Under the pieces are notes generated by a model. That model saw nothing but the letters and a program-made list of their open reading frames with translations. It was not told where the DNA came from and ran no database searches. From Bacteriovoracaceae bacterium (GTDB lineage Bacteria > Bdellovibrionota > Bacteriovoracia > Bacteriovoracales > Bacteriovoracaceae): DNA of 62,997 nt. The stretch lies in assembly GCA_019752535.1 (NCBI GenBank), contig JAIEMA010000033.1, positions 1-62,997 on the forward strand, written 5' to 3'. Of the stretch, positions 35,969 through 42,809 are shown one piece after another. Position 1 is the stretch's first letter. Each line of letters opens with the position of its first letter. The translations under genes were made by a program, and so were the position numbers.

Positions 35969-36988
35969 ATGCTTTTTGTTCTTATTTTAGTTTTTTCATC
36001 ATGGGCAAAAGATTGTTCGCCAGTCAATCTAGCCGCTCCAGGAAATATTCATCAAGATATTCCCGTGTTTGATCAAGTGGGAAGTCAAATTTGTTTTTCC
36101 TATGCGGCCATGCAATTGATCGAATCTCAAAGAGTAAGTCTTGGGCATAAATATACGCAAGAGGCTGCGATCAGTCCCTTGTCGATGGCGCTTGGACTAG
36201 CTTATTCAAATGGTCAAAAAAATTTACAGCAAGGAAGTACACCGTGCAGGGCCATTGAATACGCTCGAACGCACGAAGTTTGTCCCGAAGGCAAAACTTT
36301 TAAGAGCAGTGAAGAAATCATTGAACACTCTAAGCAGTTCAGTAACTGTAAAAGTGACTCTGCCCATCCAGATTGCAAGAAAGTCTTAAAGATTGTTTCA
36401 AAAGAGAGCTCTATTCTTAAGCAGGATAATCCTTTGGCCTATGTCTTGGCGGTAGAGAATTCGATGTGTTCACCGGCCGATAAAATCAAATTAGATATTC
36501 CAAAATGTGAAAATTTAAATGACGAATCACAACCGTCAAGCGTCTTTAAACAAAAAGTCGATGCGGTGTTTGATTCATCTAATCCAAGACCGGTGCAGAT
36601 TGGATACAGCATGCATATTTTCTCCTATGACGGAAATGAAAAAGAAAAATATAAAATTTTGAGAGAAGTTAATCCAGATGTGATTGATTTTTCTCTAAAG
36701 TATAAGCCCCATGCTTCAATTCTGTTGGGACGAAGACTTAATAAAAAAAATAAGTGTCAGTATCTCTTAAGAAATACCATGGGCTCAAGCTTTTGTCCGT
36801 CAGGCATCGTCGATAAGCGTGGATGGGAGTGCGATTCTAAAAGTGGAGGCATTTGGATTAATCAAGATGAAATTTTTGATGCTACTTTCGAAGTGTCTAG
36901 TATTGGTGGTTCACCGAATGTCGGGCAGCTGATAGAAAAGCTTGAAAAGATAAATACTGAAGAGTGTAAAACTTGTTCTGGAAAATAG
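35969..36988 (+). CDS. Exported papain-like cysteine protease
   Basis: 339 residues with a signal peptide (cleavage after SWA, about residue 13). The C1 pattern is present: Cys42 in VFDQVGSQICFSYAAM with the upstream Gln of the oxyanion hole, His in PHASILLGRR and Asn in LLRNTMGSSF, although the QGxCGSCW motif is reduced. There is no visible propeptide, and the mature N-terminus follows at once. Eight or more cysteines suggest disulfides. It is probably secreted or periplasmic; a predator's digestive enzyme is a fair guess. Confidence 0.75.
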   Translation: MLFVLILVFSSWAKDCSPVNLAAPGNIHQDIPVFDQVGSQICFSYAAMQLIESQRVSLGHKYTQEAAISPLSMALGLAYSNGQKNLQQGSTPCRAIEYARTHEVCPEGKTFKSSEEIIEHSKQFSNCKSDSAHPDCKKVLKIVSKESSILKQDNPLAYVLAVENSMCSPADKIKLDIPKCENLNDESQPSSVFKQKVDAVFDSSNPRPVQIGYSMHIFSYDGNEKEKYKILREVNPDVIDFSLKYKPHASILLGRRLNKKNKCQYLLRNTMGSSFCPSGIVDKRGWECDSKSGGIWINQDEIFDATFEVSSIGGSPNVGQLIEKLEKINTEECKTCSGK

Positions 36989-37020: not shown

Positions 37021-37884
37021 TTATAGCGTCGGCTTAAACCAGCAAAGAGGGCGTAGACCTACTTTGTCACCATTCTTTGGATGACAAGTGCCTTTGACTT
37101 CATCTTTTTGATCGACTTCATCACTGAGGGCCTTATCGCAAAGAGCACCATTGAAATAGGTGTCTAGGCGGCATTGAGCTGCTGGGTGAGCGTCGTCTGT
37201 CTTATCTACAATTGAGCGATCAGGAGAATCGAACTGTGGTGTAGGTGAGCTTCTTAAGCTTGCTAAGAGTTTTGCCAAAGCAAGACCCGCCATTGAGATA
37301 CGCTGACACATGGCCTGCTCTCCACGAGCTGCATAAGAAGCTGAACACTTGTTCACGACAAACTCAGGGATCTGCATTTTTGAGACGATCTCTTCATTGT
37401 CGTCATTTTCAAAAGCACGTCTTAAACACTTAAGACCTGCAAAGTAATCGGATTGGCCTTCGTTTGAAGCCCATTTTTGCATAAAGCCGCCAACCTTTGG
37501 CGCGCCTCCAAGATGGTGGCCGATTTCATGGCACAAAACCATAGCAAAAGCGTCGGGAGTTGTTTCTTGGTGACGAGCGAGTCCACCATACATGTTCACG
37601 TTCCAAGTTGAAAGGAATCGAGAGGCATTTGCATTCACAGTACCGTCATCCCATTTACGAGCGACCTTTAATTTCCCACCCATATCTTTCACGATAGGAA
37701 TGTAAATCTTTTCAAGCATATCAATCACGCCATTAAATTCGGCTTCTGTGATCCCTCCGCCAGTTTTCATTCCTACGGGGATATTAAGATCGTTATCTGG
37801 TAAAAAGCCACCGCTTCCGTCTTCTGTGCACGCGAAAGCATTCATGGCGAATACTAGGGACAAAGTCACTAAAAGTGATTTCAT
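37021..37884 (-). CDS. Exported HEXXH metallopeptidase-like protein, paralogue B
   Basis: 287 residues with a signal peptide (cleavage after NAFA). Zinc motif HEIGHH at 119-124 in VLCHEIGHHLGGAP and Glu142/Asp146 in SNEGQSDYF correspond to the paralogue at 14897-15541. The end of both has CRLDT and a RPLCWF/RPFCWY segment. Extra residues between the motifs (KCLRRAFEND onward) and a Lys/Asp-rich stretch before the end distinguish it. GGAGAG precedes the ATG. Probably a secreted zinc peptidase, substrate unknown. Confidence 0.75.
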   Translation of the reverse strand: MKSLLVTLSLVFAMNAFACTEDGSGGFLPDNDLNIPVGMKTGGGITEAEFNGVIDMLEKIYIPIVKDMGGKLKVARKWDDGTVNANASRFLSTWNVNMYGGLARHQETTPDAFAMVLCHEIGHHLGGAPKVGGFMQKWASNEGQSDYFAGLKCLRRAFENDDNEEIVSKMQIPEFVVNKCSASYAARGEQAMCQRISMAGLALAKLLASLRSSPTPQFDSPDRSIVDKTDDAHPAAQCRLDTYFNGALCDKALSDEVDQKDEVKGTCHPKNGDKVGLRPLCWFKPTL

Positions 37885-38213: not shown

Positions 38214-38936
38214 TTACTTTTGTCTCCAAGAGACTCCGGCACTGATAAAGTAGGAAGATTGACCATGATTCTCGCCACCGCCGCCGTACACATCAAGTTG
38301 CAAATCATTTGAGAGCAGATAGGCCAATCCTGTATCAAAATTTAATTGGGCAAGTTCATTTTGATATGTTCCATAAGCTTCTACAAACGAACTCAAATTT
38401 CCGACTAAGCCAAAAGAGAGATTGTAGACATAATTATAGGTGTGAACTCGTAAGGCTTCAGAATAGACGAGAGAGTAGTTTTGCTCAAAAGTAAAACGAG
38501 AGTTGAGCTGATGGAAAGCTGTCACCAAAAAACCTGGTGAGAAGTGATTGTTTTGAAACTCATGACTCTTATAGGGAAGTGAAGTTCTCGCCTGAAGGCC
38601 TAGGACTGGAATCAGGCCATTTTGTTTTTCTATTAATGTATATCTAAAGCCAGCTCTTAAATCACTTATTCCTTCATCAAAAGAGCGATCAACTCCCTTC
38701 TGATAGGCCACACTCGTTTGAAATTCAACTCTCTCGCTTAGGCCATATCTTAGAAGATTGTTCTGGTTTAAATTTTTTCCATCCTGCCAGTTGTGATCTA
38801 TCCCAGATTGAATTTGAAAGTAATTTTTTCCCACAACAAAAGCCCCGATCGCTTGGCCTGGTCTTCCGGCCCGGATGGTTAGATTGGTTTGGGCGAATGC
38901 AGAATTCAAAAGGAGAAAAAATAAAAACAATTTCAC
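38214..38936 (-). CDS. Exported beta-barrel protein of the MetA-pathway/transporter type
   Basis: 240 residues with a signal peptide (cleavage after SAFA). GTG start overlapping the mscS stop (GTGA). The end, from FDTGLAYLLSNDLQLDVYGG to the last strand ISAGVSWRQK, matches the Phenol_MetA_deg/outer-membrane barrel family, whose members form small channels or have unknown roles. As third gene of the coupled operon (1012-residue P-loop protein, MscS, this barrel) it would supply the outer-membrane part. The final Lys is unusual for a barrel C-terminus. Confidence 0.65.
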   Translation of the reverse strand: MKLFLFFLLLNSAFAQTNLTIRAGRPGQAIGAFVVGKNYFQIQSGIDHNWQDGKNLNQNNLLRYGLSERVEFQTSVAYQKGVDRSFDEGISDLRAGFRYTLIEKQNGLIPVLGLQARTSLPYKSHEFQNNHFSPGFLVTAFHQLNSRFTFEQNYSLVYSEALRVHTYNYVYNLSFGLVGNLSSFVEAYGTYQNELAQLNFDTGLAYLLSNDLQLDVYGGGGENHGQSSYFISAGVSWRQK

Positions 38937-39778
38937 AATGATGCCTGTATCATTTTCTGTTTATCACTCATTTCAAAAAGAGAAGGTCTCTGAATTCCTG
39001 CCTGAATCAGGGCTTCATTTCCCCTTAGCAAAATGTCTGTTTGAAAAGCTTTTTCAAACCTGACATCGATGACATAAGCCTTAACTCTCACTTGCATCGT
39101 GAGGCGATTGGCCATCTCAATCTCATTGAGGACAATAGCGATTGGCTTTTTTAAAAAAACATATTTGCTTGTGGCAGCAGTTTCATAAAGGATCGAGCGA
39201 GCTCTCTTAAGATCACTATCAATGGCGAGATGAAAATTCACCTCAATCATCATATCAAGCTCTCCGAAGTTTCCAGATGAAACTACGTCAGTGATAAAAC
39301 GTGAGTTAGGGATCGTGACGACTGAGTCATCCAGTGTCACCAAACGCACGGCCCGAAGACCAATGGTTTTAATCTCTCCGTAAGTTCCTGCAAAACTGAC
39401 TCGATCCCCGACTTGGAAAGGACGATCAAACAGTAGGATGACTCCGGCCACGACAGAAGAGATGAGATCTTTCAAAGAGAGGCCTAGGGCAACGGCTAAA
39501 GTACCACTGACCGCTAAGAGTAGCCCTTTTGGGGGCTGAACGATGCCATAAAAGACATAGCTGCCGCCAATAATATAGATGACAAAAGAAATAGAGGTCA
39601 CAAGCTGTGCGATTAATAATCGTCGAGAAGGAATCTTATGATGAAGCTTCTCGCCGATACTACTAACAAGTTTGACGATGAAAGCTAGGCTTATAAAACC
39701 AAGAAATAAAAGAGCAACTTTCGTCACACTTAAAACATCAACAATCGTAGCGGCATTACTTAAATCTTGCTCATTCAT
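38933..39778 (-). CDS. MscS-family mechanosensitive channel
   Basis: 281 residues: N-terminal tail, membrane segments at about 15-35, 50-70 and 80-100, and the pore helix and beta-domain pattern in VSGTLAVALGLSLKDLISSVVAG, then LFDRPFQVGDRVSF and TIPNSRF, all typical of MscS. It opens under membrane tension to release solutes. The start overlaps the stop of the 1012-residue gene by 8 bases and its stop overlaps the barrel gene, so the three products are made in fixed proportion. Separately this would be an ordinary MscS. The context suggests a regulated or tethered channel. Confidence 0.9.
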   Translation of the reverse strand: MNEQDLSNAATIVDVLSVTKVALLFLGFISLAFIVKLVSSIGEKLHHKIPSRRLLIAQLVTSISFVIYIIGGSYVFYGIVQPPKGLLLAVSGTLAVALGLSLKDLISSVVAGVILLFDRPFQVGDRVSFAGTYGEIKTIGLRAVRLVTLDDSVVTIPNSRFITDVVSSGNFGELDMMIEVNFHLAIDSDLKRARSILYETAATSKYVFLKKPIAIVLNEIEMANRLTMQVRVKAYVIDVRFEKAFQTDILLRGNEALIQAGIQRPSLFEMSDKQKMIQASL

Positions 39779-42700
39779 ATAAAAAATTCTTTCCGATTAG
39801 ATAATAATCGATCACATATTGTGCTCTTGAAGAGATGCGGGCACGAGCAAAATCATCAATCCAGATAAGCCCCTTATCTTGAGCTTCTTTAAGGCATTTT
39901 CTAATCACAGTACTCTCAAGAGTGGTGACGGTGCAGAGTTCGTCTTGAGTAAGGCTGTCATGCCGTGCCAGTGATGCGAGGACGAAGAGAGACTGATCAC
40001 TCATGGAGGCTACAAGACTTGAACTTACAAAAGAGGGAATCCCAACATGAATATGCTTCTCTTTTGGATGAGAGAGGGCCGAAACCCAATACATTAAGGC
40101 TGAGCGTGGATTCCCACGAGACTGACCCCAAAGGAGTCTAAAGAATTGAGACTCCACTTGCGAGCTAACCACTTCACCACTTCCGTAAGCTCGTATCGAT
40201 TCATCAAAGCTGATTGAGTATTGTGTCTTTTTGTGACGATTCATGATGAGGTTTTGAATTTCAAAATCCTTCCAAGGAGAGAGAGTAAGGACTTTGCCAT
40301 AAAACTGCTGACTCCCAAGGACCCCCTTGAGGTAAGCCCATGAATGAGAATTAATCGAGAGGCACCAGAAAATATTCTTTGTGCGAAGACTCACAATTTC
40401 AAGAAAGACTTTGTAAACCTCAAAGCCTCCAATCATGCCAAGAAACATGTTTTGAATATCATCTAATAGAATGATCTTTTTTGAAGTCACTCGATCAAAA
40501 TCCTGAAAATCCGCAATACTATTAATCTTATGGGCCAAGAGTTTTGAGAGCCAAGTGTAGAACTGCTCGATCTCAATGAGCTTTGGAGAAATTCGAGAGG
40601 CGAGGACTTGAGACTTGTGATCCTCATGATGAGCTATAAAGTCGAAAATTGTCGTGCGACCCATGCCTCGATTGCCCACGATTAAAAGGAGATCATCACT
40701 TCCTTTTCCTCCCTTCCACGCTTGAATGGAGTTGAGAATAATGGAAGTCACCCCATCATTTCTTTGGAGGAATATATCTTCTTTCGCTGGCAGATAATAA
40801 TCAAACAGATGGAGATACTCTTGAGGAGGAGTCGCTTGAGTCTCATCTGAAGACTTATTTTTTTCTAACCTTTTGCGAATATATTCGGAGAGTAGGCGTT
40901 TGAAAAAATCGAACCGAGTTAAATAGGTAAAAGTAATTTTGATAATATCAAGAGTGATTGAAGCAATAAATAGAGGAGGGAGTAACAAAGCCAGAGCAAC
41001 AGGTTTACTTATTAGAAAAGAGAGCTTCTCTTTAATGGATGGGAAGCGATTTTTAAAGGCTTCAATGATTTCGTCTTTCCACCGGTAGGATTCAAAAAAC
41101 AATAAGAAGATATTAATGTAGAAGACGATGGAATAGAAAAGATTATAGGCCAGGGCTCTTCTGACTGCATCTCTTGTAATGTGAAGGAGAAGGAACTCTA
41201 CGAAAATGATTCTTGAGAGTTTTTTTGCAAGATTTTCAATTCTTAACTTCGTTGCATTCTCATCCTTGAAGTTTGTTGCTCCTAAAGTCACCTCAAGAAG
41301 GGATGTAAGAAGTAATCGTGAAAGTTTGTAGAAAAAGTAGGTCTCTAAGTAAAAAACGAAAAATGAGATCTCAGGTAAATCAGTAGATTTAATAATGGCG
41401 ATCGAGAGCTCTAAGCTTACAATCATTCCAACATAGGGAAGAAACGGATTGAGGCGAGTAATCCAGATCGCAAGATTTGTGCGGCTACGATAGTCGATCA
41501 TTGACTTAGCAAGGATCGTTTCTCTTAAAACATCCAAGCGAAGTGAGATGAAATCAAATCCTTTTTTAAGCAAAAATGGGATGAAAAGAAACAGAAAGAG
41601 GAAAACTCCTTGCTCTGCGAGATTGACCCACCCATCGAGACCTAATTTCGATTTCGCCTTGATTTCAATCCACTTACTAAGTCCTGCAGAAATAAAGCGC
41701 AAGGGAAGTACTTCTATCTCCCTTGAGAGTCCTTCAAGATTCCTTTGGCTCAGTCCGCGAGGACGGGGGCAATTGAAGCGGTCACATTCTTGTAAAAAAT
41801 AAGCTCTCAGTTTACCGGCGTCACTGAGGACCTTAAAGTTTTGTGCCTTAAGCAGACTCAATATCCTAGAGCGAGATTTTGCAAGCTTTAGTAATCTTTT
41901 TTGAGCTTTAAGATAAAGACTATCATATTTTTTGTAGATTCCATCCGGGTCATTAAGGGCCTCAGCGACGTATTTTTCAGGGATCTGAGGTGTTGAGCCT
42001 TCAGTGAGATCAGAGAAGAGCTCCTGCATGCTTTGAACAGCTCTCCTCCATGTATCACTACATTTTTGAAATTGTTCACTGAGTGCGATCTTGTCGTTTG
42101 AAGGTTTAATCTGCGTGAGCGAGGTAACTTCCTGTTGGATTTGATCAATGAGTGTCTTTTTTTCTTTTATGACGTTTAGAAATTGAATGTTTTCGGATTC
42201 AACGTCCACAAGGAATTTTTCAAGGAGTGTTTGGGCAGTCAAAAGTGATTCGAGTTGTGTGTCAGTTTGCTTACTTGCACTCTCTTCTGACTCGTTGAGT
42301 TTCTCCTGGGCCAGTTTAAGTGTTTCATTACTTGTGGCTAATTCATTTTCTAGAGCTTGAGTGTTAGATGACTTCTCTCTTAGGCTTTTGTAGGAAGACT
42401 CAAGTAGGGAGCGTCGCTCTTTTGTGAGAGAGAGGAATTCTACTTTCTTATGATTAAATTCAATTTGCGCCCTGATCAGCTCATCCCTTTTTAAGAGGGC
42501 TTGTGTGCAGGTGGCTTCAACTTTGAGCTGAGGGTTGTTTAATAGGTTTTCTTGCTGGCTTTCAAGTTTTAACTCTTTAATTCTTTCCTGAATATTATCG
42601 ACATCAGAGAGATCGACTTTAAAGAGGACAGTTAAGGGAAAATCGGACCCTGTTCCTTGACCCAATAAGGTATTTATTGCTTGAGTCATTTTCTGAATCG

Positions 42701-42809
42701 TGGCAAGACGAGTGTTGATATCCTCTAGTTTTTGTTCACATTGTGGGGTGATGGCAAGAGTTTGAAATGAAAGTCCTAGTAACAGGAAAAGTGAGGCAAT
42801 GATTTTCAT
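39771..42809 (-). CDS. Coiled-coil, membrane and P-loop protein coupled to MscS
   Basis: 1012 residues. A signal-like hydrophobic segment (1-20) precedes a long heptad-rich region (about 20-230) and mixed helices to 390, which should be periplasmic. Membrane segments fall at about 400-625. The cytosolic part begins near 680 with a P-loop at 711-720 (VGNRGMGRTT), Walker B at 777-786 (KKIILLDDIQ), a sensor-1-like Asn at about 820 and a helical tail. The last 75 residues look like a winged helix (DELCTVTTLESTVIRKCLKEA). The Walker A Lys is replaced by Arg. The layout recalls large MscK-like channels with the pore moved to a separate gene (the next one), plus a STAND/AAA module. The function is unknown. 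Confidence 0.75.
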   Translation of the reverse strand: MKIIASLFLLLGLSFQTLAITPQCEQKLEDINTRLATIQKMTQAINTLLGQGTGSDFPLTVLFKVDLSDVDNIQERIKELKLESQQENLLNNPQLKVEATCTQALLKRDELIRAQIEFNHKKVEFLSLTKERRSLLESSYKSLREKSSNTQALENELATSNETLKLAQEKLNESEESASKQTDTQLESLLTAQTLLEKFLVDVESENIQFLNVIKEKKTLIDQIQQEVTSLTQIKPSNDKIALSEQFQKCSDTWRRAVQSMQELFSDLTEGSTPQIPEKYVAEALNDPDGIYKKYDSLYLKAQKRLLKLAKSRSRILSLLKAQNFKVLSDAGKLRAYFLQECDRFNCPRPRGLSQRNLEGLSREIEVLPLRFISAGLSKWIEIKAKSKLGLDGWVNLAEQGVFLFLFLFIPFLLKKGFDFISLRLDVLRETILAKSMIDYRSRTNLAIWITRLNPFLPYVGMIVSLELSIAIIKSTDLPEISFFVFYLETYFFYKLSRLLLTSLLEVTLGATNFKDENATKLRIENLAKKLSRIIFVEFLLLHITRDAVRRALAYNLFYSIVFYINIFLLFFESYRWKDEIIEAFKNRFPSIKEKLSFLISKPVALALLLPPLFIASITLDIIKITFTYLTRFDFFKRLLSEYIRKRLEKNKSSDETQATPPQEYLHLFDYYLPAKEDIFLQRNDGVTSIILNSIQAWKGGKGSDDLLLIVGNRGMGRTTIFDFIAHHEDHKSQVLASRISPKLIEIEQFYTWLSKLLAHKINSIADFQDFDRVTSKKIILLDDIQNMFLGMIGGFEVYKVFLEIVSLRTKNIFWCLSINSHSWAYLKGVLGSQQFYGKVLTLSPWKDFEIQNLIMNRHKKTQYSISFDESIRAYGSGEVVSSQVESQFFRLLWGQSRGNPRSALMYWVSALSHPKEKHIHVGIPSFVSSSLVASMSDQSLFVLASLARHDSLTQDELCTVTTLESTVIRKCLKEAQDKGLIWIDDFARARISSRAQYVIDYYLIGKNFLYE

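What the first reader, a model, noticed from the sequence alone, without database searches (positions are those of the whole stretch)
38214..42809. Envelope-spanning operon: coiled-coil/membrane P-loop protein, MscS channel and outer-membrane barrel
Three genes are coupled by overlaps of 8 and 4 bases. The first has a periplasmic coiled coil, several membrane segments and a cytosolic P-loop/AAA module with a winged-helix tail; the second is an MscS channel; the third has the ending of an outer-membrane barrel. It looks like a giant MscK-type channel split in three with an ATPase added, able to link the two membranes and give the channel a nucleotide-dependent control. I know no described system with this combination. 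STAND and AAA-coupled channels exist in immune and stress systems, so both roles are open.
Basis: partly seen in the sequence, partly recalled or inferred. Interest (0 to 1): 0.8.

Follow-up and report, generated by a model that had tools for sequence, protein, structure and literature searches.

The report
AAA-type partner of an MscS channel
This locus encodes a membrane-anchored ATPase-like protein that always travels with one particular kind of pressure-sensitive (MscS) ion channel in diverse bacteria, with stripped-down versions reaching a haloarchaeon, which suggests a so far undescribed partner that controls the channel.

Summary
The three genes and both overlaps (8 and 4 nt) are real. 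Genes 1 and 2 form a conserved two-gene module; the third is an optional add-on. P1 (signal peptide, periplasmic helical domain, membrane segments, ORC/Cdc6-type AAA+ plus winged helix) is followed by the same MscS subfamily, usually overlapping by 8-14 nt, in 39 of 40 class loci and 53 of 54 further loci; both exceptions are contig ends. In 369 genomes of the phylum, 64 have both and none has the channel alone. In more distant Proteobacteria and a haloarchaeal plasmid the partner can be soluble, without coiled coil and membrane part. This MscS subfamily lacks the C-terminal beta-barrel of MscS. The Walker A lysine is lost repeatedly, and is Arg in the window's own protein, so hydrolysis cannot be assumed. 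Homology of P1 to MscK is not supported (no better than a reversed control). Some loci sit in one run of genes with RimB/RimK/AstE-AspA-type enzymes, which favours osmotic or solute control over defence. Most likely P1 is a dedicated cytosolic gate or regulator of an MscS channel, reporting envelope state through its periplasmic domain. Contact between the proteins is inferred, not shown.

The parts
39771..42809 (-). P1: 1012-aa membrane-anchored AAA+-like partner protein
   Evidence: intact ORF; family in 42/129 class genomes and 70/369 phylum genomes at E<=1e-5; AF2 pLDDT 86.3
42750..42809 (-). signal peptide (about residues 1-20)
   Evidence: hydrophobic N-terminus ending in a small residue; hydropathy and alignment
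41646..42746 (-). periplasmic helical/coiled-coil domain (residues 22-388), with conserved Cys24 and Cys101
   Evidence: AF2 helices; cysteines both present in 34, both absent in 14, one only in 2 of 50 relatives; region missing in shorter family members
40920..41639 (-). membrane region (residues 391-630), 5-6 hydrophobic helices
   Evidence: mean hydropathy of 50 relatives; loop charges; exact topology unresolved
40074..40835 (-). AAA+ domain, ORC/Cdc6 fold (residues 659-912)
   Evidence: VIA-align Z 14.6-16.0 to ORC/Cdc6 chains; AAA_22 in 49/50 relatives
40650..40676 (-). Walker A, GNRGMGRTT: lysine replaced by Arg718
   Evidence: K in 49 of 50 relatives, R only here
40458..40478 (-). Walker B (around residues 778-784)
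   Evidence: Asp783 invariant in 50/50
39786..40022 (-). C-terminal winged-helix domain (residues 930-1008)
   Evidence: AF2 secondary structure; MarR_2-like weak hit; kept in the wider partners aligned
38933..39778 (-). P2: MscS-family channel without the C-terminal beta-barrel
   Evidence: PF00924 1.1e-18; closest solved relatives MscS, MscK and MscM; tails end at I-x-RP
38214..38936 (-). P3: optional outer-membrane-barrel protein, PF13557 type
   Evidence: downstream of MscS in window, L032/L107, L105, L106, L051/L130 and, with one gene between, L054; 13/125 class genomes

Best explanation
P1 and P2 are one channel system. P2 forms the MscS pore (shown by homology only). P1 is its dedicated regulatory subunit: the AAA+/winged-helix part docks under or around the cytosolic vestibule of P2, which lacks the beta-barrel that closes this vestibule in ordinary MscS (absence shown, docking inferred). 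It sets the channel's opening threshold through oligomeric state and nucleotide or ligand binding, not necessarily hydrolysis. The periplasmic helical domain and membrane helices, present in Bdellovibrionota and many others, feed in envelope state such as turgor or spacing (inferred). The physiological role is most likely release of solutes under osmotic or envelope stress (inferred). P3 is an accessory in a few lineages.
For: Linkage: MscS directly downstream in 39/40 class loci, with overlaps of 8-14 nt in all but two, and in 53/54 further loci; both exceptions are contig ends. Co-occurrence in 369 genomes: 64 both, 0 channel only, 6 P1 only (4 contig ends weak AAA fragments), Fisher p 3e-65. 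Mirror-tree r 0.90, reached in 0 of 2000 permutations. P2 is a distinct subfamily: 376-407 bits versus at most 101 for other MscS in the same ten genomes, one copy each. The minimal partner is a soluble AAA/wHTH protein next to the same subfamily: Salinirubellus 331 aa and several gammaproteobacterial loci, so the AAA/wHTH part is the shared core. Missing barrel. Context: RimB-type protease, RimK ligase and AstE/AspA deacylase next to P1, in L050, L052 and L065 as one run of same-strand genes; extra MscS genes nearby in 9/40 loci. RimB/RimK is proposed to modulate glutamate and poly-glutamate levels, and a related protease family is needed for hypoosmotic survival in P. aeruginosa (PMC12239564).
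Against: No direct evidence of contact; complexes could not be modelled. Overlapping genes and co-inheritance also fit coupled but non-contacting proteins. Patchy distribution (12/274 in a gammaproteobacterial sample, 3/289 alphaproteobacterial) fits niche or defence roles as well. The RimK context occurs in only about a quarter of class loci and is absent from the window. Hydropathy suggests six membrane helices, which would put the AAA domain outside; one must not span.
Confidence: 0.55

Rival explanations
1. Abortive-infection or stress-death device: the STAND/ORC-like P1 senses an invader or damage and opens the MscS pore to depolarise the cell.
For: AAA domain related to AAA_22, STAND and NB-ARC types; patchy distribution; found on plasmids.
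Against: No PADLOC hit to the three proteins beyond a meaningless weak coiled-coil match; neighbours scanned show only scattered restriction-type hits, no recurrent defence island; long co-inheritance in one copy; Walker A lost repeatedly; RimB/RimK context; a periplasmic disulfide-type domain is not typical of phage sensing.
Confidence: 0.18
2. Assembly or quality-control factor: P1 is an AAA-type chaperone for the barrel-less MscS heptamer rather than a gate.
For: Missing C-terminal barrel of P2 could require help in assembly; order ATPase before channel with overlap.
Against: Repeated loss of the Walker A lysine; large periplasmic domain.
Confidence: 0.13
3. Split MscK: P1 carries MscK's periplasmic and outer membrane parts and P2 its core, with an AAA domain added.
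For: Same order of layers as MscK (PMC9653487); MscK 7uw5 is Foldseek rank 7 for the N-terminal model, aligned over 621 columns.
Against: Foldseek E 1.7, probability 0.09; hhalign no better than the reversed MscK control; no MscS_porin among the listed families of 50 members; family members without any periplasmic or membrane part; the Alcanivorax genome carries a separate MscK.
Confidence: 0.1
4. Signalling in the other direction: the MscS protein or the periplasmic domain senses tension, and the winged helix of P1 acts on DNA as a membrane-bound regulator.
For: ORC/Cdc6 AAA+ with winged helix is normally a DNA-binding fold.
Against: No target sites known; the adjacent genes vary between loci; DNA binding was not testable.
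Confidence: 0.08

Closest known systems
MscK/MscM (KefA, YjeP) giant MscS channels
   Same: periplasmic helical layer, extra membrane helices, MscS core; P2 scores well against MscK
   Different: two genes instead of one; an AAA+/wHTH domain added; core lacks the C-terminal barrel; N-terminal homology not detectable
E. coli-type MscS
   Same: three membrane helices, beta domain, alpha/beta domain
   Different: no C-terminal beta-barrel; obligate AAA partner
ORC/Cdc6-type AAA+ with winged helix (also TnsC/TniB, AAA_22, STAND)
   Same: fold of P1 659-1012 (Z about 15)
   Different: membrane-anchored or soluble partner of a channel; Walker A often degenerate
RimB/RimK and Rlo systems
   Same: RimB-type PF05618 protease and RimK ligase are neighbours in several loci
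   Different: the published operons are not reported to include an ATPase-MscS pair in the passages I read (PMC12239564)

Membership tests
MscS superfamily (P2) | MS_channel beta domain and pore helix | tested here: met
   PF00924 67.5 bits vs cut-off 20.2; aligns to MscS and MscK structures
MscS (E. coli type) | C-terminal strand forming the heptameric beta-barrel | tested here: not met
   tails end at or shortly after I-x-RP with unconserved residues
MscK (P1+P2) | one polypeptide with MscS_porin domain and MscS core | tested here: not met
   two genes; no MscS_porin hit among the listed families
MscK (P1 N-terminal half) | homology to the periplasmic and TM1-6 region | tested here: inconclusive
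   hhalign equal to reversed control; Foldseek rank 7, E 1.7
ORC/Cdc6-like AAA+ with winged helix | AAA+ core followed by winged helix | tested here: met
   predicted fold
AAA+ ATPase, active | intact Walker A lysine | tested here: not met
   Arg718 in the window protein; Lys in 49 other relatives; lost or replaced in 11 of 22 diverse partners including the window
STAND NTPases | NACHT/NB-ARC/nSTAND domain above cut-off plus sensor repeats | tested here: inconclusive
   only sub-threshold matches for the window protein; matches in a minority of members
Known anti-phage systems (PADLOC 2023) | match to a defence model | tested here: not met
   one match at E 0.31 only
ATP-gated channel | nucleotide-dependent conductance | not testable with these tools
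   needs electrophysiology

The most novel reading that the evidence does not exclude
A new class of prokaryotic channel complex, shared by bacteria and haloarchaea, in which an ORC/Cdc6-type AAA+ or pseudo-AAA/winged-helix protein takes the place of the C-terminal barrel of MscS as the cytosolic gate, with an optional envelope-spanning sensor module.
Probability: 0.4. Interest if true: 0.87.

Novelty: new variant of a known kind. Interest (0 to 1): 0.7.

Why it matters
MscS channels are normally described as opened by membrane tension alone or with ligand domains fused to them. An obligate separate AAA-type partner, conserved over large distances and reduced in some lineages to just the AAA/winged-helix part, would mean that cells can command such a channel from the cytosol. 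It gives a testable system for how a tension-gated pore is put under biochemical control, and for what the C-terminal barrel of MscS is for.

Tried and rejected
The search for related loci with the single P1 sequence found nothing; the alignment query worked. P1 as an MscK homologue was tested by PF12795 search (the class hits mostly score below the curated cut-off and none marks a P1 locus), hhalign with reversed control and a separate fold of residues 22-655: not supported. In pdb_via for that half the best rows are designed helix bundles (Z 11 and below), which the tool warns may be common arrangements; no known fold is claimed or excluded. Defence role checked by PADLOC on the genes and on 87 neighbours. 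Barrel as third core part rejected on distribution. Promoter and terminator scans gave nothing above shuffles. Literature searches gave no description of an AAA-MscS pair; subscription journals are mostly not held, so absence is weak evidence. Co-evolution contact prediction was not attempted: too few pairs (58).

Full report
The observation. The three minus-strand ORFs and the two overlaps (8 and 4 nt) are present and intact. P2 is an MscS-family protein and P3 a PF13557-type barrel by Pfam; P1 alone gives only weak AAA and winged-helix hits. An alignment of 50 relatives makes the AAA assignment firm (AAA_22 in 49 of 50), and AlphaFold2 gives a confident model (mean pLDDT 86.3, pTM 0.64).

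Anatomy of P1. Residues 1-20 form a signal peptide and 22-388 a long helical domain. Cys24 and Cys101 are both present in 34 relatives, both absent in 14 and single in 2, the pattern expected of a disulfide, so this domain is very probably periplasmic. Residues 391-630 hold five to six hydrophobic helices with positively charged loops on what should be the cytosolic side; six spanning helices would put the AAA domain outside, so one probably does not span. This is unresolved. Residues 659-1012 match ORC/Cdc6 AAA+ plus winged-helix structures (Z 14.6-16.0 in the first ten rows; Foldseek E 4.9e-7 for Cdc6).

The module. In the class, 42 of 129 genomes have P1. Of 40 P1 loci fetched, 39 have the MscS gene directly downstream on the same strand; L070 is a contig end. 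The overlap is usually 11 nt, otherwise 8 or 14, with one 10-nt gap and one 47-nt overlap. Among 54 further loci (many from the same genomes), 53 show the same; in L109 the contig ends. Record titles include Gallionella, Gammaproteobacteria, Alcanivorax, Spirochaetes, Rickettsiaceae and Alphaproteobacteria; most are MAGs, so some labels may be wrong, but Alcanivorax sp. S6407 carries no MAG label.

Co-occurrence. In 369 genomes of the phylum, P1 is found in 70 and the P2 subfamily in 64, all within the 70. Of the six others, four P1 genes lie at contig ends (coordinates) and two are weak AAA fragments. Trees of P1 and P2 agree (mirror-tree r 0.898), and most out-of-phylum sequences have the same nearest neighbours in both. 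Vertical descent contributes to this correlation and there was no neutral gene as control.

A distinct channel subfamily. In ten genomes the P2 member scores 376-407 bits against at most 101 for all other MscS proteins. The members examined end at or shortly after the I-x-RP motif, where MscS continues into the C-terminal beta-barrel. So the bottom of the cytosolic cage is open by comparison with MscS.

The wider family. On plasmids of Caulobacter and Novosphingobium the upstream gene is an AAA protein related to P1 (P1 profile E 2.6e-30 and 2.3e-34), and in the haloarchaeon Salinirubellus a soluble 331-aa protein with the AAA/winged-helix part only (E 2.5e-9) overlaps the MscS gene. In samples of Gammaproteobacteria and Alphaproteobacteria (12 of 274 and 3 of 289 genomes, seeds included), 12 further loci were read. 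Ten have an upstream partner; seven match the P1 profile, and three (L197, L199, L203) are recognised only by length, position and shared motifs. Two (L192, L201) were not resolved. Several partners are soluble and about 390-430 aa.

ATP hydrolysis. The Walker A lysine is Arg in the window protein and Lys in the other 49 relatives. In the diverse set it is Arg, Ala, Leu or Ile, or the loop is gone, in several lineages. The winged helix and the tryptophan-containing segment after the sensor-1 strand are kept better. So the constant property is the AAA-winged-helix scaffold next to the channel, not catalysis.

The barrel. P3 relatives occur in 13 of 125 class genomes, 11 of which have P1 (Fisher p 1e-4, but several are from one genus); they are adjacent to the channel in only four of those, and in L105 and L106 outside the class. 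It is an optional part.

Context. In nine class loci the neighbours include a RimK-type ligase, an AstE/AspA deacylase or a PF05618 RimB-type protease, in L050, L052 and L065 all three in one run of same-strand genes with P1. RimB/RimK has been proposed to modulate glutamate and poly-glutamate levels, and the related secreted Rlo proteases are required under hypoosmotic stress in P. aeruginosa (PMC12239564). This favours solute or osmotic control. A PADLOC scan of 87 neighbours shows no recurrent defence island.

Relation to MscK. The order of layers recalls MscK (PMC9653487), but the sequence comparison equals a reversed control, and the structural match is not significant. It may work like MscK; membership is not shown.

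Verdict. Shown: obligate genetic pairing, barrel-less MscS subfamily, AAA+/winged-helix fold (by model), co-occurring cysteine pair, optional modules, degenerate Walker A. Inferred: physical complex, gating, physiological role.

Noticed in passing
L050, L052, L059, L064, L065, L038, L048, L042, L053: RimB-type protease, RimK ligase (with a TrkA_C domain in L065) and AstE/AspA deacylase recur next to the P1-MscS pair; in L050, L052 and L065 as one run of same-strand genes.
   Followed up: partly
L036, L042, L050, L052, L053, L064, L065, L067, L068: A second, different MscS gene lies within a few kilobases of the pair; CorA-type genes also recur in four class loci.
   Followed up: partly
window 40650-40676: Walker A lysine replaced by arginine only in the window's protein among 50 near relatives.
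   Followed up: yes
window 37021-37884: M48-like secreted HEIGH protease; a protein with the same motif (cluster c7) lies near the pair in L046, L055, L057, L060 and L061, possibly only because such genes are common in these genomes.
   Followed up: no
L156 3800-4950: In Halomonas sp. PA16-9 the likely AAA partner upstream of the MscS gene is broken over reading frames, perhaps by sequencing error.
   Followed up: no
L193-L203: Gammaproteobacterial and alphaproteobacterial partners fall into at least two types: P-loop kept but altered, and P-loop lost with a GCNSWAWAFL-like motif kept.
   Followed up: partly
window 35969-36988: Secreted protein with a papain-like DQ-GxQxCFSYA motif but no Pfam hit at E<=1e-4.
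   Followed up: no
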